A DNA stretch of 24,467 nucleotides, taken from IMG/VR virus record IMGVR_UViG_3300032288_002871, positions 1 to 24,467 of that record, one strand, 5' to 3'. The notes beneath the pieces were generated by a model. It saw nothing but the letters and a program-made list of their open reading frames with translations, was not told the DNA's origin and ran no database searches. Each line of letters starts with the position of its first letter. The first letter of the stretch is position 1. The translations under genes and the position numbers were made by a program. Source of the DNA: a virus. Below, piece after piece: positions 7,070 to 23,961 of this stretch.

Positions 7070-7281
7070 TTTATTATGTTTTCAAACAAATGGGATTCAA
7101 TAAAAGATTTTTAAAAAAAGAAGGAATAATAAATAATGTACATAACATTATTAGATACCTAAATGCTGATGCAATATTTACTACCGATGATTTTTCAAAA
7201 AACGTGTTTGATTTATATACACAAGGGAAATCTGAAGAAGAAATTATAAAATATATAAATGAAAACAAAAATGAAAATTAG
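7066..7281 (+). CDS. hypothetical protein, 71 aa
   Basis: Not recognised. A small helical protein with a basic N-terminal part (FNKRFLKKEG) and an acidic C-terminal helix (GKSEEEIIKYINENKN). It is coupled to the preceding gene by an ATGA overlap, and its last codons overlap the start region of the glutamine synthetase gene, so it belongs to that transcription unit. No membrane segment is evident. Confidence 0.65.
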   Translation: MIYYVFKQMGFNKRFLKKEGIINNVHNIIRYLNADAIFTTDDFSKNVFDLYTQGKSEEEIIKYINENKNEN

Positions 7282-8593
7282 GTTGGAGTACGTTTGGCTT
7301 GATGGTTATCAACCCGAACCAAATTTGAGAAGTAAAGTAAAGATTGTTGATTACGAATCAATTAAAAACGCCTTGGCGATAGGAGTAAGTAAATTACCAA
7401 TGTGGAACTTTGACGGTTCATCAACAAAACAGGCTGAAACGGGTGATTCAGATAGGTTACTCAAACCTGTTAGAATGTATATGTCAACGGTTTTTCCCGT
7501 TGAACTTCATACGGTTTATATTTTATGTGAAGTATTGAATCCTGATGGAACACCACACAAAACAAACACAAGAAGTTTATTGAATGATGAACAAGAAGAT
7601 TTATGGTTAGGTTTTGAACAAGAGTATTTTATCCAAAGAGGATTTGGTGAAGGTATTTTAGGTCACGATAGAAGATTTGTAGAACCGCAAGGTAAGTACT
7701 ATTGTGGTGTTGGTAGTAACGTAGTTGGTAGAAAGTTTGTTGAAAAACATACAGATATGTGTTTGGAATATGGTATTGATATTACTGGAACAAATGCTGA
7801 AGTGGCTCTTGGACAGTGGGAGTACCAGGTATTCTCAAAAGGGAAACTAAAAGGAGGGGATGACTTATGGATGTCAAGATATTTCCTTTATAAAATTTCA
7901 GAAGAGTATGGTTACGAAATTACACTACACCCAAAACCATTACAACAGGGAGAATGGAACGGTTCAGGACTTCACACAAACTTCTCAACAGAAACAATGA
8001 GGGAAGGTGAAAACTATATGACACTATGGGAAAGAGAAGAGTATTTCAAATCAATCTTTTCAAGTTTTGAGTCAAGACATTTAGAACACATTAAAAACTA
8101 TGGTTCACAAAATGATTTGAGATTAACAGGTGAATATGAAACACAATCAATTGATAAGTTCAGTTGGGGCATTTCAGATAGAGGGGCATCGATTAGAGTT
8201 CCACAATCAACAGCTGATAAATGGACAGGTTATTTGGAAGATAGACGACCTGGTTCAAATGCTGACCCATATAAAATTGTTTACCAAATTATGGAAACAA
8301 TTAAAAACGCAGATGCCATTTATAAGATAAAATTAAAAATGAACTTTGATGGAGATGGAAGTAAGCATAGAGACAAATTCACTGGTGTTATTCCAAACGA
8401 TGAATTGTTAAGTGAGTATAGAAATGATGATGACTATGAAATGGGTGATTTAATGAATGGTTCTAAAAATAATGTTGAACCACAAGTTGGTGTTGATGTA
8501 GTACAAGAATATTTAGATGGTAAAGAAAATAAGGTAGACAACCCACTACCCGAAACATTAAAAAATGCAATGATGAACGCAAAAGAAATTTGA
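7259..8593 (+). CDS. glutamine synthetase, type II (GSII) family
   Basis: A 444-residue homologue of the eukaryotic/GSII glutamine synthetase, which makes glutamine from glutamate, ammonia and ATP. GSII signatures occur in order: WNFDGSST (residues 49-56), the metal-binding GFEQEYF (near 118), YYCGVGSN, the N-A-E-V-x-x-G-Q-W-E-Y-Q-V block (near 180-191), the ammonia/ATP-site GSGLHTNFS (near 235), RLTGxxET and the FSWG..RGASIRVP segment, and YLEDRRPGSN (near 325-334). Key acidic, His and Arg residues appear kept, so activity is plausible. Beyond the catalytic core there is an extension of about 80-100 residues, acidic and unlike normal GSII, which are about 340-370 long. ATG 7259 overlaps the previous gene by 23 bases; ATG 7271 is an alternative start. 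A phage-borne GSII would be an auxiliary metabolic gene acting on nitrogen assimilation. Confidence 0.92.
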   Translation: MKTKMKIRLEYVWLDGYQPEPNLRSKVKIVDYESIKNALAIGVSKLPMWNFDGSSTKQAETGDSDRLLKPVRMYMSTVFPVELHTVYILCEVLNPDGTPHKTNTRSLLNDEQEDLWLGFEQEYFIQRGFGEGILGHDRRFVEPQGKYYCGVGSNVVGRKFVEKHTDMCLEYGIDITGTNAEVALGQWEYQVFSKGKLKGGDDLWMSRYFLYKISEEYGYEITLHPKPLQQGEWNGSGLHTNFSTETMREGENYMTLWEREEYFKSIFSSFESRHLEHIKNYGSQNDLRLTGEYETQSIDKFSWGISDRGASIRVPQSTADKWTGYLEDRRPGSNADPYKIVYQIMETIKNADAIYKIKLKMNFDGDGSKHRDKFTGVIPNDELLSEYRNDDDYEMGDLMNGSKNNVEPQVGVDVVQEYLDGKENKVDNPLPETLKNAMMNAKEI

Positions 8594-9934: not shown

Positions 9935-10789
9935 ATGAAAATTATCATCACAGAAAATCAACTTGAATTATTAAAAAAAACATCTTTAACTGAAAGTGAA
10001 GAACTAAATCAGTATGATTTAACTGCGGATGAAATGCGTCAAGTTGAAGAACAATCAGAACAAGATGTTAAGGAATACTATGAGAGCTTAAAAAAAGAAG
10101 TTAAGGAACTAAGAAAAAGAGTTAAAATGTATAATGACTTTGATTGGAATAAACTAGATGTTGAAAATACAAAAGTGATTAAAAAACAAATAGTCCAGCC
10201 AGAAATAAATAAATTAAAAAATCTTGAGGAACAACTTTCTAACTTTAATTTTGAAGAACGAAAGAAAGGACGAATAAATTGGAATCTAACAAGTGCAGGA
10301 GGAATTGGTTTTGCAATAAGGTATAAAAGATACCAAGATGAGGCATTGAATAGAAATCTAACTAAAGAAGATATAATTGACTTATTTGTGACAGCACTTG
10401 AGGGGGGTTCAAACTACTGGTATCATATGGATTTACCTGACAACATTAAATCATTCGGGGACTCAACATCAGAAGCGATAGGTGAATATATCCTAAAAGG
10501 TGGATACATAGTATTCTACGATGTTGAAGAATATGATAGAGTATTATGGAATAAAGAAAAAGGAGAATATAACATTCAAGGAGATGTAGAAGATGAAAAA
10601 TCTTTTAATGAGGATTTAGAAGAAACAAAACTTGGTTATGTTGATATGGATAAAATATTGGATACAATAACAATAATAAAAAGAGATTACCCTGAAGTTT
10701 GGGAAAACATTTTGTTGGAACAGGCAGATGCTGGAGACGCCGATGTTTTTCTTCAAATTTGTGTAATGGGTGAAGTAGTTTATGGATAA
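9935..10789 (+). CDS. MKIIITENQ-tagged protein, 284 aa
   Basis: Function unknown. It begins MKIIITENQLELLKK, the tag shared with the genes at 15593, 16135, 16479, 17817 and 20519. After the tag comes an acidic coiled-coil region (about residues 25-105, with E/K heptads) and then a globular part with aromatic residues (SNYWYHMDLPDNIKSFGD, DVEEYDRVLWNKE). The I-T-E within the tag fits a T4-type prohead-protease site. It starts a new unit after a terminator, and its end overlaps the start of the DHH-SET gene by eight bases if ATG 10782 is used there. A virion-internal role is inference. Confidence 0.75.
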   Translation: MKIIITENQLELLKKTSLTESEELNQYDLTADEMRQVEEQSEQDVKEYYESLKKEVKELRKRVKMYNDFDWNKLDVENTKVIKKQIVQPEINKLKNLEEQLSNFNFEERKKGRINWNLTSAGGIGFAIRYKRYQDEALNRNLTKEDIIDLFVTALEGGSNYWYHMDLPDNIKSFGDSTSEAIGEYILKGGYIVFYDVEEYDRVLWNKEKGEYNIQGDVEDEKSFNEDLEETKLGYVDMDKILDTITIIKRDYPEVWENILLEQADAGDADVFLQICVMGEVVYG

Positions 10790-12998
10790 TATGAGAAAAT
10801 TAATTAAAGAATCTGGAATTAGAGATATTAACAATATCGCAAAAAGATACAAGAAGGCTAAAATATACTTTCACCAAGATTTAGATGGTGTTACAACGGC
10901 ATTGGCAATGAAAAACTATTTGGAACAACAAGGTATTGAAGTTGTGGATGCTGAAGTTATACAATACGGAGATAAGGAGTTTTCAATTAAGAAAGCTGAT
11001 GCACAAGGAGAAGTGATGCCGGTACTTGTTGATTTTGCACACGGAAAACCAATGTTTGTAATACATACGGATCACCACGATACTCAAGCAGGTGCAGAAG
11101 AAACACAATCTACAAGTTTTAGACATTCAAGATCTAATGTTGAAACCATATCACAACTACTATCCCCAAAAGAAATATTCCCATCAGATGATATTATGTT
11201 GATATCTATAGTAGATTCTGCAAACTTCGCATCAAATGAAATCACACCAGAAATGGTAATGAACTACCTATTCAAGTATGATAAAGAAGCGTCTTTGAGA
11301 TCAAATAAAATGATGATGGGTTTAGTAACCAACAAACTTCTTTTGGCTTTTAAAAATAAACCAAGATTTTTAGAAGAAATTGTATTGAACGCTAAACCAT
11401 CACTATTGAGTATATTAAACAATATTAGAAAACAGGTAGATGAAAAAGGTTATGCTAAACCTGAAGAGTTAGTATCAAACCAAGCAAGTTATATTGAAAA
11501 ACAAAAACAGAATAAACAAGTTCAAAGAGTTGGAAATATTATAGTTCAATATGGTGGTGGAAGTATGACTAAGGCTGGTTCTTATGATAGATATACACCA
11601 TTCAAAAATAATCCAGATGCTGATTTTATTGTGATTGCTTGGCCGTTAGGGTTGGTACAAGCTTCCTGTAATCCGTTCAAACAAGAGAGAGCTTTGAAAG
11701 GTGTTGATTTAGGTGAAATGAAAAACGAAGTTTTAAGTAAGTTTGAAAATGAATTAAAAGGAATGACAATTACATTTGGAACACTTAAAAGAATATCTGA
11801 AACAAAGGCGGATTACCAGTCAGTCGGATTTACTTTCAAAGATATGTTAGCAATATATGGTAAATTACCATCATTTAAAATTAATGGTAATAGTGACAAC
11901 CTGATAAAAATATTAGAAAATGTGTCGAGTAAGTTATTTAAATCATTATCTGACAAACAAAAAGAATTATTAGATAAAGTAACAATAAATGGTTGGGATA
12001 TAATTCAAGCAAATTCAGGAGGACATAAGTGTATAACAAACATTTCAGGTATGTCTTTTCTTTATAGTAAAAGAAGAAAAGATGACGACAACCTTTCTGA
12101 CGATATGAAGTTAATTACCTACTATAAAGGAAATAATAGATTTGTTAAAGACATACAAGATAAACTTTCAAAATTTGGAAGGCTCTCAGACAAACAAATT
12201 GAAATGGCTCTTGATATTATAGGTAAAGAGACAAAATCAGACACACCTGAAATTACTTCGTATGTTGAATTAACAAAGGCAATACAACAAGAGTTTGTAA
12301 ATGTCTTGAATGAAAAAATTGAAAAAGGTTCGTTGAATGAAAGTAAAAACGAAACAAAAAAATATTATATTGATGACAGTAAAATCAAAAATGCAGGAAA
12401 AGGTGCTTTTGCAAAAAAAGACTTAAAGAAGGGAGAAAGAATAGGATTGTTACATACTATTAATAAGTTGTATACAGATTATGACTTTACTGAATTAGGT
12501 GAGATGCATAATCACAGCAACAAACCAACTTGTCATAACGAAAAGGTGGGTAATAAAAGATATTTAGTCGCATCAAAAGATTTGAAAAAAGGAGAAGAGT
12601 TAACCACAAATTATAGATTACAACCTGATTTAGAACAACCAAAAAAAGATTGGGGTTCTTTAAATGAAAATAAAATGTATAAGCCAGAAGTAGATGGTTA
12701 TAGAACTTACTCTCCATTTAAAAATTTACCATATATTATAGTAAATGGAAATGCTATCGATTGTAATAATATTGTGCATGATTTAATACTTTTAGGTGAT
12801 AATAAAAAAATTAAATATTGTAAAAAGAACTCAGGAATTTACACAATAAAAGGTGCGAATAATATTGTAGAGATACCAGTTCAACAAGGAGAAAACATTA
12901 AAGATATTTTCAAAGATTCCAAGTCAATTTCAGAATGGATTAGAAATAGAGTGAAAAAAATAGATAAAAACGGAGAAATTAAAAAAATGTTCTTCTAA
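10782..12998 (+). CDS. DHH-family phosphoesterase fused to a SET domain
   Basis: A 738-residue multidomain protein. Residues about 25-110 show DHH phosphoesterase motifs: HQDLDGVTTA, VDFAHG and HTDHHDTQ. D-S-A-N-F follows near 148 and the DHHA1-type G-G-H-K near residue 413. DHH enzymes hydrolyse oligonucleotides or cyclic dinucleotides, or act as RecJ-like exonucleases. Residues about 525-617 form a SET-type lysine methyltransferase module: GKGAFAKKDLKKGE, NHSNKPTCHN and KGEELTTNY. The SET domain is bracketed by near-identical GSLNESK (516-522) and GSLNENK (625-631). A third C-terminal domain of about 105 residues is unrecognised. ATG 10791 would give MRKLIKESG, which also fits the leader-tag pattern, so either start is possible. 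Confidence 0.85.
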   Translation: MDNMRKLIKESGIRDINNIAKRYKKAKIYFHQDLDGVTTALAMKNYLEQQGIEVVDAEVIQYGDKEFSIKKADAQGEVMPVLVDFAHGKPMFVIHTDHHDTQAGAEETQSTSFRHSRSNVETISQLLSPKEIFPSDDIMLISIVDSANFASNEITPEMVMNYLFKYDKEASLRSNKMMMGLVTNKLLLAFKNKPRFLEEIVLNAKPSLLSILNNIRKQVDEKGYAKPEELVSNQASYIEKQKQNKQVQRVGNIIVQYGGGSMTKAGSYDRYTPFKNNPDADFIVIAWPLGLVQASCNPFKQERALKGVDLGEMKNEVLSKFENELKGMTITFGTLKRISETKADYQSVGFTFKDMLAIYGKLPSFKINGNSDNLIKILENVSSKLFKSLSDKQKELLDKVTINGWDIIQANSGGHKCITNISGMSFLYSKRRKDDDNLSDDMKLITYYKGNNRFVKDIQDKLSKFGRLSDKQIEMALDIIGKETKSDTPEITSYVELTKAIQQEFVNVLNEKIEKGSLNESKNETKKYYIDDSKIKNAGKGAFAKKDLKKGERIGLLHTINKLYTDYDFTELGEMHNHSNKPTCHNEKVGNKRYLVASKDLKKGEELTTNYRLQPDLEQPKKDWGSLNENKMYKPEVDGYRTYSPFKNLPYIIVNGNAIDCNNIVHDLILLGDNKKIKYCKKNSGIYTIKGANNIVEIPVQQGENIKDIFKDSKSISEWIRNRVKKIDKNGEIKKMFF

Positions 12999-13233: not shown

Positions 13234-13265
13234 CTTGACAAATAAAAATAAAAGTCGTAACTTTG
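13234..13265 (+). promoter_or_regulatory. Bacteroidota-type promoter for the large RNA
   Basis: CTTG (13234-13237), 20 bases, TAACTTTG (13258-13265). A transcript would begin near 13272, just before a 6-bp hairpin, and no convincing protein frame follows for almost 1 kb. Confidence 0.7.
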
Positions 13266-13271
13266 TAAAAC

Positions 13272-14205
13272 AAATTCGGAAACGTCCGAAATCGTTCTTT
13301 GAAAAATGAGAATATCCATTCAGGAAACTGATAAAAGATATTGGGCTGTGTATAGTCCTTAAATAAACTACGAAAGTAGGATAAAGTGAATCCACAAGTG
13401 TAATGGATTTGCGGTTTGGGAAACCGAACTCAAGTACACAAGCGGGATACCGTTTAACCTTTAGTACCGAGGGCAACGCTGTAGGGAAAGTGGTTAGATG
13501 ATTGGGCGATGTGGGTCGTCTGATTGAGGTGGGAACACCAATAGGAATAACTCGTAGGAATTTTGCAAAACATAGGGTTATCCAACTTTATTATTGCGAG
13601 TTCCAATATGATAGGATACTTAAAACCGAAAGGTATGTTAACGTACAGGTGGTGCTGTTATTAACCTTGATAAACCTCTACCAAGGGGTTAATCACGAAG
13701 TAATCTTGAAGTATGGAGATGGGGACATTTCAGAGAGTAGTTGAGTATCGGGTCGCTCAAAAGGTGGCTTGGCTCGGGTGGCGGACCACTACTTTCACAA
13801 TCCACGACACAAAAACTTTATGGAAAGTAATAAATCTATTATTAAACTACAGAAAGGAAAAGTGTCCGTCAGGTTTGGATGAAAGGTGACTACATAGTAA
13901 TGAGCCGTTCATTGCACACAGAGATCCCAAGTCAATGTGTAATTATCCGAAAAACCTTTAATCCCGCAAGGACGAACTGGGGAGGCATCCTCGGAAAGAG
14001 TCGATTAAGATGAGAGTAGTTCAAACCTCAAGGAGTGGTTCACCTAAATAACCGTCACTGAGAAATACTTCTCAAAAGGAAGTGGATAAGAGTAGAAAAA
14101 ATAATGACTCTAAAGGTTCTCAATGAAACGTGTAATCTCAACGTTCTTTTTTAGGTTTATCTTATAAGAAAAAAAATATGGGTACAAATGACTTTGTATC
14201 CTTTT
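13272..14205 (+). ncRNA. giant structured non-coding RNA candidate (GOLLD/ROOL-like or new class)
   Basis: About 930 bases without a credible gene, richer in G+C than its surroundings, bounded by a promoter (13234-13265) and a terminator (14180-14211). Local hairpins include 13275-13290 (6 bp, AACG loop), 13368-13379 (GAAA), 13389-13409 (6 bp), 13412-13426 (6 bp), 13528-13539 (GGAA), 13625-13634 (GAAA), 13661-13692 (9 bp with a GG bulge), 13897-13915 (7 bp), 13982-13992 (GAGG/CCTC) and 14059-14074 (6 bp). Longer-range helices include 13549-13554 with 13597-13602, 13733-13741 with 13788-13796 (9 bp, one G-U), 13958-13963 with 14003-14008, and a possible closing helix 13307-13313 with 14116-14122. 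Size, GNRA loops and location in a tRNA-rich phage recall GOLLD and ROOL RNAs. Class membership is not shown. Confidence 0.75.
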
Positions 14206-14211
14206 TTTTTT
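14180..14211 (+). terminator. strong intrinsic terminator of the large RNA
   Basis: GGGTACAAA (14180-14188) pairs with TTTGTATCC (14193-14201), nine pairs with one G-U, loop TGAC, then ten T. The 3' arm also carries the TTTG element of the next promoter. Confidence 0.9.
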
Positions 14212-21192: not shown

Positions 21193-21264
21193 GGTTTCTT
21201 AGTATAGTTGGTAATACCCCGGCTTTGTAACCCGGAGTCATCAGTTCGAACCTGATAGAAACCT
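21193..21264 (+). tRNA. tRNA-Thr (anticodon TGT)
   Basis: Acceptor GGTTTCT/AGAAACC, D stem GTAT/ATAC, anticodon loop TTTGTAA, T arm ATCAG/CTGAT with loop TTCGAAC. The innermost anticodon-stem pair is C-C. No encoded CCA. Confidence 0.9.
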
Positions 21265-21301
21265 CAAAAAGAAAACGTTCTTTGACATATTGGCATTAAA
21301 T

Positions 21302-21372
21302 TGTTCTCTCGTCTAATGGCAGGACACACGGTTTTGGTCCGTGGGATTGGGGTTCGAGTCCCTGGGGAACAA
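21302..21372 (+). tRNA. tRNA-Gln (anticodon TTG)
   Basis: Acceptor TGTTCTC/GGGAACA, anticodon stem CACGG/CCGTG with loop TTTTGGT, T loop TTCGAGT. The first base T pairing with A72 is typical of Gln tRNAs. No encoded CCA. Confidence 0.92.
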
Positions 21373-21378
21373 CAATAA

Positions 21379-21464
21379 GGAAGATGAATCACAGCGGCCT
21401 GTGACCCCGTCTTGAAAACGGGCGGTACCTTGACGGGTATTGGGATCGACACCTACTTCTTCCT
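21379..21464 (+). tRNA. tRNA-Ser (anticodon TGA)
   Basis: Anticodon stem CCCGT/ACGGG with loop CTTGAAA, a long variable arm (CGGTACCTTGACGGGTATTG region) and acceptor GGAAGA/TCTTCC. The T arm is weak (loop ATCGACA, one mismatch) and the discriminator appears to be T, not the usual G, so ends may be off by one. Confidence 0.8.
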
Positions 21465-21471
21465 CAAACAC

Positions 21472-21544
21472 AGGGTAGTTGACTAATTGGTAAGTCACCA
21501 CGTTTGGGACGTGGATTATGTCGGTTCGAGTCCGGTCTACCCTA
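21472..21544 (+). tRNA. tRNA-Pro (anticodon TGG)
   Basis: Acceptor AGGGTAG/CTACCCT, D stem GAC/GTC, anticodon stem CCACG/CGTGG with loop TTTGGGA, T arm GTCGG/CCGGT with loop TTCGAGT. No encoded CCA. Confidence 0.92.
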
Positions 21545-21551
21545 CAATAAG

Positions 21552-21626
21552 TCCTCGTAGCTCAGTTGGTTTTAGAGCACTCCACTTTTAATGGAGGGGT
21601 CACAGGTTCGAACCCTGTCGGGGACA
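21552..21626 (+). tRNA. tRNA-Lys (anticodon TTT)
   Basis: Acceptor GTCCTCG/CGGGGAC, D arm GCTC..GAGC, anticodon stem CTCCA/TGGAG with loop CTTTTAA, T arm ACAGG/CCTGT. No encoded CCA. Confidence 0.93.
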
Positions 21627-21630
21627 CAGA

Positions 21631-21699
21631 TTTAGAGAATGATAATCAAATACGGCTAGGGTGCACGAGTCAATGATATAAAGATTAAAATTCTCTAAA
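21631..21699 (+). ncRNA. rod-shaped RNA element 1 in the tRNA array
   Basis: TTTAGAGAAT (21631-21640) pairs perfectly with ATTCTCTAAA (21690-21699). After a 2x2 internal loop (GA/AA), TAATC (21643-21647) pairs with GATTA (21683-21687), and GGCT (21654-21657) with AGTC (21668-21671). It is not a tRNA: there is no anticodon or T arm. It fills the whole gap between tRNA-Lys and tRNA-Val. Confidence 0.6.
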
Positions 21700-21702
21700 C
21701 AC

Positions 21703-21776
21703 GCACCTTTAGCTCAGATGGTAGTAGCGGTTGTTTTACATACAACAGGTCACAGGTTCGATCCCTGTAGGGTGTA
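21703..21776 (+). tRNA. tRNA-Val (anticodon TAC)
   Basis: D arm GCTC..GTAGC, anticodon stem GTTGT/ACAAC with loop TTTACAT, T arm ACAGG/CCTGT with loop TTCGATC, acceptor GCACCTT/AGGGTGT with a terminal G-T pair. No encoded CCA. Confidence 0.9.
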
Positions 21777-21787
21777 CAAAAAAATAA

Positions 21788-21873
21788 GGGAGAGTTGAGC
21801 AATTGGTTGGCTCAGCGGTCTGTAAAACCGTCTTCTGTAATGGAACTTGGGGGTTCGAGTCCCTCCTCTCCCA
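21788..21873 (+). tRNA. tRNA-Tyr (anticodon GTA)
   Basis: Acceptor GGGAGAG/CTCTCCC, anticodon loop CTGTAAA, long variable arm (CTTCTGTAATGGAAC) as expected for bacterial Tyr tRNA, T loop TTCGAGT. No encoded CCA. Confidence 0.93.
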
Positions 21874-21881
21874 CAAAAAAT

Positions 21882-21970
21882 TGATGGGTGTCCCGAGATG
21901 GCCGAAGGGTCCGGCCTGTTAAGCCGACGAGAAGTATTCTCCACCGTGGGTTCAAATCCCACCCCATCAG
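21882..21970 (+). tRNA. class II tRNA with anticodon GTT (Asn codon, Ser-like body)
   Basis: Acceptor TGATGGG/CCCATCA with discriminator G, D arm CCC..GGG with a GG loop, anticodon stem (C)CGGC/GCCG(A) with loop CTGTTAA. It has a long variable arm with its own 5-bp hairpin (GAGAA/TTCTC, 21929-21941) and T arm GTGGG/CCCAC. A GTT anticodon reads Asn codons, but Asn tRNAs normally have a short variable loop; long arm plus G73 are Ser features. Amino-acid identity is therefore uncertain. Confidence 0.8.
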
Positions 21971-21993
21971 CTGATTTTTTCCGAACTATCAGA

Positions 21994-22003
21994 TATTTAT
22001 TAA
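21994..22003 (+). promoter_or_regulatory. TATTTATTAA motif before the HNH gene
   Basis: A close variant of the TATTTATAA motif, 27 bases upstream of ATG 22021. It may give the HNH gene a promoter independent of the tRNA operon. Confidence 0.35.
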
Positions 22004-22020
22004 TATAAAATGTTAATATT

Positions 22021-22566
22021 ATGGAAAGGTATTCGGAAAAAATTATATCTTTGAGGAAAGAAGGAAAAACCTACAAAGAGATTACTAAAATTTTAGGTTG
22101 TGCAATGTCAACTGTTTCGTATCATTGTCAGATACATAAATTGGGAGACAACAATCAAAAAGTAACTGAAGAGGAAAAAGAACAACTTCAAAAATTGTAC
22201 GATGAGATAGGTTCCCTAAAAAAAGTTGCAAAATTGACTGGTAGGTCTTTTCAAACCGTTAAAAAACACGTTAATAGTGTAAGTAGAGTTAAAAAGATTA
22301 GTGGTTCACAATCAGTTATATTATGGAGAAAGAGAACTAAAAATAAATTGATTGATTACAAAGGTGGTAAATGTGAGATATGCGGTTATGATAAATGTGT
22401 AAGAGCATTAGAGTTTCATCACAAAGACCCAACTGAAAAAGATTTTTCTATTTCAGGTAGAAGTTTGTCTTTTGACAGATTAAAAGAAGAGGTTGATAAA
22501 TGTATGTTGGTGTGTTCTAATTGTCATGCTGAAATACACGAAAACATAATAAAACCGCTCATCTAG
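22021..22566 (+). CDS. freestanding HNH endonuclease with N-terminal helix-turn-helix
   Basis: A 181-residue protein. Residues 10-75 contain two helix-turn-helix-like units (YKEITKILGCAMSTVSYHC and LKKVAKLTGRSFQTVKKHV), which would bind DNA. The C-terminal 70 residues form an HNH nuclease with two zinc pairs: C-E-I-C-G-Y-D-K-C, then LEFHHKDP with the catalytic His, then C-S-N-C-H-A-E-I-H-E-N. Such genes are typical homing endonucleases that insert near conserved sites such as tRNA genes. The stop codon TAG (22564-22566) is formed by bases 8-10 of the following tRNA-Ile, so the gene is fused into the array by a 10-base overlap. Confidence 0.92.
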   Translation: MERYSEKIISLRKEGKTYKEITKILGCAMSTVSYHCQIHKLGDNNQKVTEEEKEQLQKLYDEIGSLKKVAKLTGRSFQTVKKHVNSVSRVKKISGSQSVILWRKRTKNKLIDYKGGKCEICGYDKCVRALEFHHKDPTEKDFSISGRSLSFDRLKEEVDKCMLVCSNCHAEIHENIIKPLI

Positions 22567-22629
22567 CTTAATCGGGAAAGCACCACGCTGATATCGTGGA
22601 GAGAATCGGATCGTAACCGGTGATGAGCA
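22557..22629 (+). tRNA. tRNA-Ile (anticodon GAT)
   Basis: Acceptor GCTCATC/GATGAGC, D arm GC..GC, anticodon stem CCACG/CGTGG with loop CTGATAT, T arm ATCGG/CCGGT with the atypical loop ATCGTAA. Its first ten bases are also the last codons and stop of the HNH gene. No encoded CCA. Confidence 0.88.
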
Positions 22630-22646
22630 CAAAAAGGGGAATAAAT

Positions 22647-22684
22647 AGTGTGGGATCCCCAAGGAACTGCAGTCCTACCACACT
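22647..22684 (+). ncRNA. rod-shaped RNA element 2 in the tRNA array
   Basis: AGTGTGG (22647-22653) pairs perfectly with CCACACT (22678-22684). Inside, AGGA and TCCT flank ACTGCAG (22662-22676). It occupies the gap between tRNA-Ile and tRNA-Ser. Confidence 0.45.
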
Positions 22685-22687
22685 CTA

Positions 22688-22771
22688 GGAAGATAAACCT
22701 TGATGGTGATAGGGTCCGCCTGCTAAGCGAGATGTACCTTCGGGTATTTGGTTCGATTCCAGTGTCTTCCG
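22688..22771 (+). tRNA. tRNA-Ser (anticodon GCT)
   Basis: Acceptor GGAAGAT/GTCTTCC, anticodon loop CTGCTAA, long variable arm (GATGTACCTTCGGGTATT region with a TTCG hairpin loop), T loop TTCGATT, discriminator G. Anticodon stem has an A-C mismatch. No encoded CCA. Confidence 0.88.
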
Positions 22772-22780
22772 CAAACATAT

Positions 22781-22854
22781 GGTGGATATAGCTCAGTAGG
22801 TAGAGCATAGGATTGTGGTTCCTTGTGCCGTGGGTTCGATTCCCACTGTTCACC
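22781..22854 (+). tRNA. tRNA-His (anticodon GTG)
   Basis: The extra G-1 (22781) opposite C73 (22854) is the His identity pair. Acceptor GTGGATA/TGTTCAC, D arm GCTC..GAGC, anticodon loop TTGTGGT, T arm GTGGG/CCCAC with loop TTCGATT. No encoded CCA. Confidence 0.93.
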
Positions 22855-22860
22855 CAAATA

Positions 22861-22914
22861 TTCTATAAGTGTCCAAATGTGGTAAATAATATGTAGTTTT
22901 GGACAACTATAGAA
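22861..22914 (+). ncRNA. rod-shaped RNA element 3 in the tRNA array
   Basis: TTCTATA (22861-22867) pairs with TATAGAA (22908-22914). After a 2x2 internal loop (AG/AC), TGTCCAAA (22870-22877) pairs with TTTGGACA (22898-22905). Fifteen perfect pairs in all, built like element 1. Confidence 0.6.
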
Positions 22915-22917
22915 ATA

Positions 22918-23046
22918 AAAGAATTTACAACGGACAAGGCTTTGGCAAGTGAGTTGAGAATGAGTCGTAGGAGATATAATCGTTTGGACTACAAAATGTT
23001 TGATACAATAGATTGGTGGGATGCGAGTGGTTGACCAAAATTCTTT
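22918..23046 (+). ncRNA. larger structured spacer between tRNA-His and tRNA-Arg (element 4)
   Basis: AAAGAATTT (22918-22926) pairs perfectly with AAATTCTTT (23038-23046), enclosing 111 bases. Just inside, CAAC (22928-22931) can pair with GTTG (23030-23033). The interior is G+A rich, has no plausible ORF and no tRNA fold that I can see. It follows element 3 after three bases. Confidence 0.45.
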
Positions 23047-23050
23047 AATT

Positions 23051-23123
23051 ACCCCTGTAGTTTAATAGAATAAAACCCTAAACTACGAATTTAGAGTTGT
23101 GAGTTTGAATCTCGCTGGGGGTA
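23051..23123 (+). tRNA. tRNA-Arg (anticodon ACG)
   Basis: Acceptor ACCCCTG/TGGGGGT, anticodon stem CTAAA/TTTAG with loop CTACGAA, T arm GTGAG/CTCGC with loop TTTGAAT. A34 would need deamination to inosine by the host TadA. No encoded CCA. Confidence 0.9.
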
Positions 23124-23125
23124 CA

Positions 23126-23183
23126 ATAAACAAGAATTTGCACAATAAACAACATCTGTTTATCGTAGCAAAAACACGTTTAT
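23126..23183 (+). ncRNA. rod-shaped RNA element 5 in the tRNA array
   Basis: Three stacked stems: ATAAAC (23126-23131) with GTTTAT (23178-23183); a 5x5 internal loop; TTTGC (23137-23141) with GCAAA (23168-23172); a 3x4 loop; ATAAAC (23145-23150) with GTTTAT (23158-23163), closed by the 7-base loop AACATCT. It fills the gap between tRNA-Arg and tRNA-Trp. Confidence 0.6.
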
Positions 23184-23188
23184 CATTT

Positions 23189-23259
23189 GCGTCTCTGGTG
23201 TAATGGTAGCATGATGGATTCCAAACCCATCGGTCAGGGTTCGAAACCTTGGGGGCGTG
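23189..23259 (+). tRNA. tRNA-Trp (anticodon CCA)
   Basis: Acceptor GCGTCTC/GGGGCGT with discriminator G, D stem GTG/CAT, anticodon loop TTCCAAA, T arm CAGGG/CCTTG with loop TTCGAAA. No encoded CCA. Confidence 0.9.
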
Positions 23260-23267
23260 CATAGGAC

Positions 23268-23320
23268 GGGAGACAAGTGTTGGGGGTAAAACCGTTAGGA
23301 TACCCCAACCAAGTTCTCCC
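23268..23320 (+). ncRNA. rod-shaped RNA element 6 in the tRNA array
   Basis: GGGAGA (23268-23273) pairs with TCTCCC (23315-23320). Both sides of the internal loop read CAAGT (23274-23278 and 23310-23314). GTTGGGG (23279-23285) pairs with CCCCAAC (23303-23309). Thirteen perfect pairs. It lacks a following T-run, so it is not a standard terminator, and lies just before a promoter. Confidence 0.6.
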
Positions 23321-23333
23321 TGAAGAAATTATT

Positions 23334-23364
23334 TTTGGCAGTTTAATAATTTTTTGTATCTTTG
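23334..23364 (+). promoter_or_regulatory. Bacteroidota-type promoter, leaderless gene
   Basis: TTTG (23334-23337), 19 bases, TATCTTTG (23357-23364), ATG at 23369. The transcript would begin at or within a few bases of the start codon. It may also drive tRNA-Phe and genes beyond. Confidence 0.78.
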
Positions 23365-23368
23365 TGAT

Positions 23369-23869
23369 ATGAAAATGAAACTACCATACGAAATGACATC
23401 AAGGGCAATCAAAGGTTATTCAGAATCATTGACTGCAAAAGGGGAAACAAACGATTGTGTTGTAAGAGCATTTGCTTCTTCATTTGAACTTACTTATGAC
23501 GAAGCTCACAAGTACGTTGCGGAAGAATTCAGAAGAAAGCCAAGAAAAGGTACTTTTATGACAGCATCTAAAATGAATAAAATGTCAGATGCCAATACCA
23601 CAGTTAATGGTAAAAAAGTTTATCCTTTGGGTAAAGAAAGTAAATCAGTTTTTCTTCCATATTCACTTTCTTATGAGGTGAAAGTAAAAGGTGAAGTAAA
23701 GATGAGACAAATGACTGTTGGTGCTTTCATCAAGAAAAATCCAATCGGAACATTTTTCGTGTTAGTTAAAGGACACGCATTTACAATCAAAGATGGTGTT
23801 GTTATTGGAAATTGGGAAGACGCAGTTAAAACAAAACGACCTATGAGAGCAGCATTTCAAATTAAATAA
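23369..23869 (+). CDS. putative cysteine-peptidase-like phage protein, 166 aa
   Basis: ATG 23369 (MKMKLPYEMTSRAIKGYSES) is chosen because the upstream part of the frame lies in the promoter. A T-N-D-C-V-V-R-A-F block (Cys near residue 29) followed by a helix, and later GTFFVLVKGHAFTIKDGVV followed by I-G-N-W, give a Cys...His...Asn order. This resembles papain/C39-like phage proteins that begin NDCVVRA. Whether it is an active peptidase is not shown. It sits inside the tRNA array, with its stop codon TAA directly abutting the first base of tRNA-Phe. It is basic overall, with no signal peptide. Confidence 0.72.
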   Translation: MKMKLPYEMTSRAIKGYSESLTAKGETNDCVVRAFASSFELTYDEAHKYVAEEFRRKPRKGTFMTASKMNKMSDANTTVNGKKVYPLGKESKSVFLPYSLSYEVKVKGEVKMRQMTVGAFIKKNPIGTFFVLVKGHAFTIKDGVVIGNWEDAVKTKRPMRAAFQIK

Positions 23870-23944
23870 GGAACCCTGGTGTAAGCAGGTGTGTCACGTC
23901 TGACTGAAGATCAGAAGGTAACCGTTCGACTCGGTTGGGTTCCA
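23870..23944 (+). tRNA. tRNA-Phe (anticodon GAA)
   Basis: Acceptor GGAACCC/GGGTTCC, D arm GTG..CAC, anticodon stem TCTGA/TCAGA with loop CTGAAGA, T arm AACCG/CGGTT with loop TTCGACT. It begins on the base after the preceding stop codon. No encoded CCA. Confidence 0.93.
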
Positions 23945-23961
23945 CAACAAAAATAAAAGAT

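What the first reader, a model, noticed from the sequence alone, without database searches (positions are those of the whole stretch)
13234..14211. About 0.93 kb giant structured RNA with its own promoter and terminator
Seen: no credible gene, higher G+C than flanks, a good promoter, a strong terminator, at least ten local hairpins (several with GNRA loops), and longer-range helices such as 13733-13741 with 13788-13796. Known: GOLLD and ROOL are giant RNAs of phages and prophages, often near tRNA genes. Inference: this is a member, a divergent relative, or a new class of giant ornate RNA. If new, it would be one of few such RNAs from phages of Bacteroidota.
Basis: partly seen in the sequence, partly recalled or inferred. 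Interest (0 to 1): 0.9.

Follow-up and report, generated by a model that had tools for sequence, protein, structure and literature searches.

The report
GOLLD RNA with rRNA-style antitermination leader
The stretch is a full GOLLD RNA, a known kind of giant phage RNA that builds hollow cages, here in a relative of the largest known phages; what looks new is that it starts with the same promoter-hairpin-boxA signal that bacteria use to transcribe ribosomal RNA.

Summary
In detail: 13235-14211 carries a Bacteroidota-type promoter, about 0.93 kb of structured non-coding RNA and an intrinsic terminator. It is not a new class. Rfam GOLLD (RF02032) matches 13733-14144 over its whole length at 324 bits (gathering 150). 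The 5' half, outside Rfam, is an ordinary GOLLD 5' domain: a covariance model of 13342-13449 also finds the matching place in an Acinetobacter phage GOLLD. The loop dinucleotide that makes the known cage contact B8 switches GC to CG as published. Relatives include the 642-kb and 635-kb megaphages. Mechanism: the RNA is expected to assemble into a hollow homo-oligomeric cage during infection (inferred from env-38). New here: 22 of 24 distinct leaders carry boxA (GTTCTTTRA), usually just behind promoter and hairpin, as in Bacteroidota rRNA operons. The same motif precedes tRNA arrays and tmRNA in these phages; its excess over a reversed-motif control equals the number of such sites. The phages thus appear to put their stable RNAs under the host's ribosomal antitermination complex (inferred, untested).

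The parts
13235..13265 (+). Bacteroidota-type promoter TTGACA-N17-TAACTTTG (-33/-7); start of transcription about 13270 (inferred)
   Evidence: same motif at the same place in most distinct relatives; TAnnTTTG as Bacteroidetes promoter consensus, PMC10309648
13275..13290 (+). leader hairpin TTCGGAAACGTCCGAA, in the place of boxB
   Evidence: hairpin kept with changed stem sequences (CAGG/CCTG, TTGG/CCAA, CAGT/ACTG)
13294..13304 (+). boxA-like antitermination site GTTCTTTGAAA
   Evidence: 22 of 24 distinct leaders; shuffles mean 0.08; match to Bacteroidota rRNA leaders and spacers
13313..13731 (+). GOLLD 5' (cap) domain, not covered by the Rfam model
   Evidence: covarying helices; sub-domain model finds Acinetobacter phage GOLLD (47 bits) and L058 (32 bits)
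13342..13449 (+). best conserved part of the 5' domain (model R1), with loop 13348-13352 pairing 13435-13439
   Evidence: 23 of 23 sequences complementary, compensatory changes in four of them
13733..14144 (+). GOLLD 3' (ring) domain, full Rfam RF02032 model 1-416
   Evidence: 324.2 bits, E 1.6e-92
13797..13860 (+). variable single-stranded linker, corresponding to the disordered linker inside the cage of GOLLD env-38
   Evidence: alignment; Kretsch 2025, PMC12286853
13966..13967 (+). self-complementary dinucleotide GC of loop L21a (bridge B8 of the 14-mer); CG in L051, L052, L056, L114
   Evidence: published GC/CG switch, PMC12286853
14180..14211 (+). intrinsic terminator: 9-bp stem and T10
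21193..23945 (+). array of 12 tRNA genes downstream
21277..21292 (+). second boxA in the window, GTTCTTTGACATATTG, between tRNA-Thr and tRNA-Gln; identical over 16 bases to the 16S-23S spacer boxA of a genome related to Tamlana (L119)

Best explanation
Shown: 13235-14211 is a complete GOLLD RNA gene of a huge phage related to the 635-642 kb megaphages, with its own Bacteroidota-type promoter, a leader with hairpin and boxA-like site, a 5' cap domain, a 3' ring domain and a terminator. Inferred from the solved env-38 homologue: copies of the transcript assemble through kissing loops and A-minor contacts into a hollow homo-oligomeric cage (14-mer) during infection, with the linker inside; cargo and purpose are unknown, translation-related molecules (tRNA, ribosomes) being the likeliest. 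Inferred here: boxA in the nascent leader recruits the host NusB-S10 antitermination complex, so that polymerase crosses about 0.9 kb of untranslated structured RNA without Rho termination, and perhaps helps the RNA to fold, as for ribosomal RNA. The phages appear to use the same signal for tRNA arrays and tmRNA.
For: Rfam match. Relatives in megaphages LR756502 and LR745206. Covariation in both domains against simulated nulls. 5' domain shared with Acinetobacter phage GOLLD. B8 dinucleotide switch. Leader conservation. rRNA leader/spacer match in genomes related to Tamlana. Motif tally: 57 hits against 31 for the reversed motif in 3.6 Mb; 24 clear and 2 probable hits lie at GOLLD, tRNA or tmRNA genes.
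Against: No transcript, no NusB binding and no assembly was measured. GOLLD of the 642-kb phage (L052) and of the Acinetobacter phages (L118) lack the boxA leader, so it is not a universal GOLLD part. Quaternary contacts other than B8 could not be mapped; the B7 partner showed no clear covariation. Host phylum is inferred.
Confidence: 0.8

Rival explanations
1. The GTTCTTTGAAA element is not an antitermination site but a structural or processing part of the GOLLD RNA (for instance one strand of a closing helix).
For: RNAalifold pairs 13297-13299 with 13735-13737; the motif is fixed in most GOLLD leaders.
Against: Only three base pairs; the distance to the structured core varies widely between relatives; the same motif stands before tRNA arrays and tmRNA and in Bacteroidota rRNA leaders and spacers; one relative (L107) repeats promoter-hairpin-boxA in tandem.
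Confidence: 0.2
2. A new class of giant RNA distinct from GOLLD.
For: The 5' half has no Rfam match.
Against: The 3' half matches the whole GOLLD model at twice the gathering score, and part of the 5' half matches the 5' half of an Acinetobacter phage GOLLD.
Confidence: 0.01
3. Protein-coding region or degenerate sequence with chance hairpins.
For: An 80-codon TTG-start ORF exists at 13502-13744.
Against: ORFs broken in most homologues; covarying helices; conserved promoter and leader.
Confidence: 0.01

Closest known systems
GOLLD RNA (Rfam RF02032; env-38 cryo-EM 14-mer, Kretsch 2025, PMC12286853)
   Same: whole 3' domain; two-domain plan; over 800 nt; phage-encoded near tRNAs; linker; L21a GC/CG loop
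   Different: own Bacteroidota-type promoter and a boxA leader; own terminator; 7 kb from the tRNA array instead of inside it
GOLLD of Acinetobacter phages (Herod, AM24 and others; L118)
   Same: 3' domain at 225 bits and same 5' sub-domain (47 bits)
   Different: embedded in a tRNA operon without the promoter-boxA leader
Bacterial rrn leader with boxB-boxA antitermination sites (PMC10250234, PMC5725501)
   Same: order promoter, hairpin, boxA; second boxA after a tRNA; GTTCTTTGACATATTG shared with a Bacteroidota rRNA spacer
   Different: here on phage GOLLD, tRNA and tmRNA genes, not on rRNA
ROOL RNA
   Same: giant phage RNA near tRNAs that forms cages
   Different: sequence and structure unrelated; no Rfam match here

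Membership tests
GOLLD | covariance model of the conserved 3' domain above the gathering score | tested here: met
   324.2 bits against 150, model 1-416
GOLLD | less conserved 5' domain upstream, total over 800 nt | tested here: met
   about 930 nt; 5' sub-domain model R1 matches other GOLLD loci
GOLLD | covarying helices | tested here: met
   10 pairs with E <= 0.05 against 60 simulated alignments, all in helices
GOLLD | phage or prophage location near tRNA genes | tested here: met
   virus record; 12 tRNAs from 21193; tRNA-Met within about 20 nt of GOLLD in four relatives
GOLLD | self-complementary L21a loop (bridge B8) | tested here: met
   GC in 19 and CG in 4 of 23 sequences
GOLLD | homo-oligomeric cage | not testable with these tools
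   needs cryo-EM or mass photometry
GOLLD | expression rises at lysis | not testable with these tools
   no RNA-seq at hand
ROOL, HEARO, OLE | covariance model match | tested here: not met
   only GOLLD and a sub-threshold CsrC match at E up to 1
rrn-type boxA antitermination site | sequence close to G[CT]TCTTT[AG]ANA | tested here: met
   GTTCTTTGAAA at 13294; gamma-proteobacterial consensus GYTCTTTAANA in PMC5725501; Bacteroidota rRNA versions
rrn-type boxA antitermination site | place just behind the promoter, after a hairpin | tested here: met
   25-30 nt behind the promoter in most relatives
rrn-type boxA antitermination site | binds NusB-S10 and suppresses Rho termination | not testable with these tools
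   needs biochemistry

The most novel reading that the evidence does not exclude
Megaphages of Bacteroidota place their stable RNAs (GOLLD, tRNA arrays, tmRNA) under rRNA-like promoters with boxA sites and so take over the host's ribosomal antitermination and RNA-folding complex; GOLLD would be a ribosomal-RNA-like transcript by its mode of synthesis.
Probability: 0.6. Interest if true: 0.65.

Novelty: new member of a known kind. Interest (0 to 1): 0.45.

Why it matters
GOLLD's function is an open question. A boxA leader shared with ribosomal RNA, tRNA arrays and tmRNA says that the phage treats GOLLD as a stable, heavily transcribed RNA, and names a host factor (NusB-S10) through which synthesis and perhaps folding can be tested. 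It also places GOLLD in two of the largest known phage genomes, whose description (PMC7162821) does not contain the word GOLLD.

Tried and rejected
Pattern AAGGAGTGGTTNNNCCTAA gave 24 viral contigs of which only one had GOLLD: too weak a probe. Search for a kissing partner of L20 at the end of the 5' domain gave no significant covariation. A sample of 148 Bacteroidota genomes had no GOLLD, but no control rang, so this shows nothing. The 735-kb phage LR756501 has no GOLLD match, though it has boxA sites at tRNAs. A search of the phage collection with L058 found nothing. A 400-genome search failed on the server side.

Full report
What it is. Rfam's GOLLD model (RF02032) matches window 13733-14144, + strand, over all 416 positions at 324.2 bits (gathering score 150, E 1.6e-92); no other family reaches its threshold in the region. 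The model covers only the conserved 3' domain. The window is a 24,467-base virus fragment.

Extent. A promoter of the Bacteroidota type, TTGACA-N17-TAACTTTG, lies at 13235-13265, and a terminator (9-bp stem, T10) at 14180-14211. TAnnTTTG is the described Bacteroidetes promoter consensus (PMC10309648). The transcript would run from about 13270 to about 14205. Its G+C is higher than that of the flanks, it folds 4.2 sd better than shuffles, and its ORFs are broken in most homologues.

Relatives. blastn found two uncultured megaphages, LR756502 (642 kb) and LR745206 (635 kb), at 66-70% identity, and Acinetobacter phages over about 130 bases of the 3' domain. The covariance model confirmed GOLLD in both megaphages (275 and 287 bits) and found none in the 735-kb LR756501. 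Two window proteins are also closest to these three records. Phages above 634 kb were predicted to infect Bacteroidetes (PMC7162821). Pattern and protein scans of IMG/VR raised the set to 24 distinct GOLLD sequences, 51-89% identical to the window besides the window itself.

Structure. On 23 sequences (L058 left out) RNAalifold gives many helices in the 5' domain with both-sided changes. A test like R-scape (G statistic with average-product correction, against 60 alignments simulated on the fitted tree) found ten pairs with E <= 0.05; all are in helices, nine of them with 100% and one with 91% standard pairs. They include 13733-13796, 13343-13358, 13473-13479 and 13675-13688. Loop 13348-13352 is complementary to 13435-13439 in 23 of 23 sequences, with GTGTA/TACAC replaced by GCTTA/TAAGC (three sequences) and GTATA/TATAC (one); the single pairs are not significant by themselves. 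A covariance model of 13342-13449 finds the matching place upstream of the 3' domain in Acinetobacter phage Herod (47 bits, E 3.6e-10) and in the distant L058 (32 bits, E 4e-6), so the 5' domain is the usual GOLLD one, at least in this part.

Cage. GOLLD env-38 is a hollow 14-mer; its half-shells are joined by self-pairing loops, and the L21a dinucleotide switches between GC and CG (PMC12286853). The corresponding dinucleotide here, 13966-13967, is GC in 19 and CG in 4 of 23 sequences. Assembly itself is inferred.

Leader. Between promoter and 5' domain nearly all relatives have a hairpin of changing sequence and then GTTCTTT[GA]A, mostly 25-30 nt behind the promoter. The motif is found in 22 of 24 distinct leaders; dinucleotide shuffles give 0.08 on average, 1 at most. 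It resembles boxA, the RNA site that recruits NusB and S10 in rRNA operons, where boxB, boxA and boxC follow the promoter and a second set precedes the 23S gene (PMC10250234; gamma-proteobacterial consensus GYTCTTTAANA, PMC5725501). Genomes related to Tamlana (Flavobacteriaceae; the genome behind L088) carry close forms of GTTC[TA]TTGACATATTG in the 16S leader and the 16S-23S spacer.

Test of specificity. In 13 phage records (3.6 Mb) GTTCTTTGANA occurs 57 times against 31 for the reversed motif. I looked at the surroundings of these hits. Ten are GOLLD leaders (one leader holds two), eleven are clearly in or just before tRNA arrays, three stand within about 30 nt before tmRNA genes, and two more are probably tRNA sites; the rest look like chance hits, mostly in coding DNA. 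The excess over the control, 26, equals this count. In the window itself the only two hits that fit GTTCTTTGANA are the GOLLD leader (13294) and the spacer between tRNA-Thr and tRNA-Gln (21277).

Mechanism. Shown: identity, domains, leader anatomy, association of boxA with stable RNA genes. Inferred: recruitment of the host complex, protection from Rho, help in folding, cage formation and its role. Not all GOLLDs have the leader: L052 and the Acinetobacter phages, where GOLLD stands among tRNA genes, lack it.

Limits. Most relatives are close, so covariation tests have modest power; the null has a floor of about 0.017; the sorting of the 57 motif hits was done by eye; host phylum is inferred from promoter and relatives; the held library of papers is incomplete, so 'not reported' for boxA at GOLLD rests on searches and on my own knowledge.

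Noticed in passing
21277-21292: rRNA-type boxA GTTCTTTGACATATTG between tRNA-Thr and tRNA-Gln; motif hits at the same kind of place in relatives L040 (12008) and L085 (11128).
   Followed up: yes
L140:998-1013, L150:1017-1031, L151:923-953: boxA sites within about 30 nt before phage tmRNA genes; in G072 (L151) the tmRNA lies next to GOLLD.
   Followed up: partly
L107 (reverse strand), upstream of GOLLD: Promoter-hairpin-boxA repeated about three times in tandem before GOLLD, like tandem rRNA promoters.
   Followed up: no
L059:696-800 and L065:6630-6720: An extra structured element, GGAGGTCTGGTGTGAACC...CGGTAGCA, between promoter and boxA or behind a second promoter; no clear Rfam family, function unknown.
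   Followed up: partly
L060:4370-4470: GOLLD copy lacking about 66 nt of the 3' domain (window 14034-14099); real deletion or assembly error.
   Followed up: no
window 7259-8593: Phage-encoded glutamine synthetase-like protein (Pfam Gln-synt_C), also in the 635-735 kb megaphages at 45-52% identity.
   Followed up: partly
window 10782-12998: 738-aa protein joining a DHH-type N-terminus (weak match) with a SET domain.
   Followed up: no
L113:247-434: Group I intron (Rfam, 61 bits) about 600 nt upstream of a GOLLD leader.
   Followed up: no
L131:13653-13715: freshwater-1 RNA (RF02979) inside a phage tRNA array.
   Followed up: no
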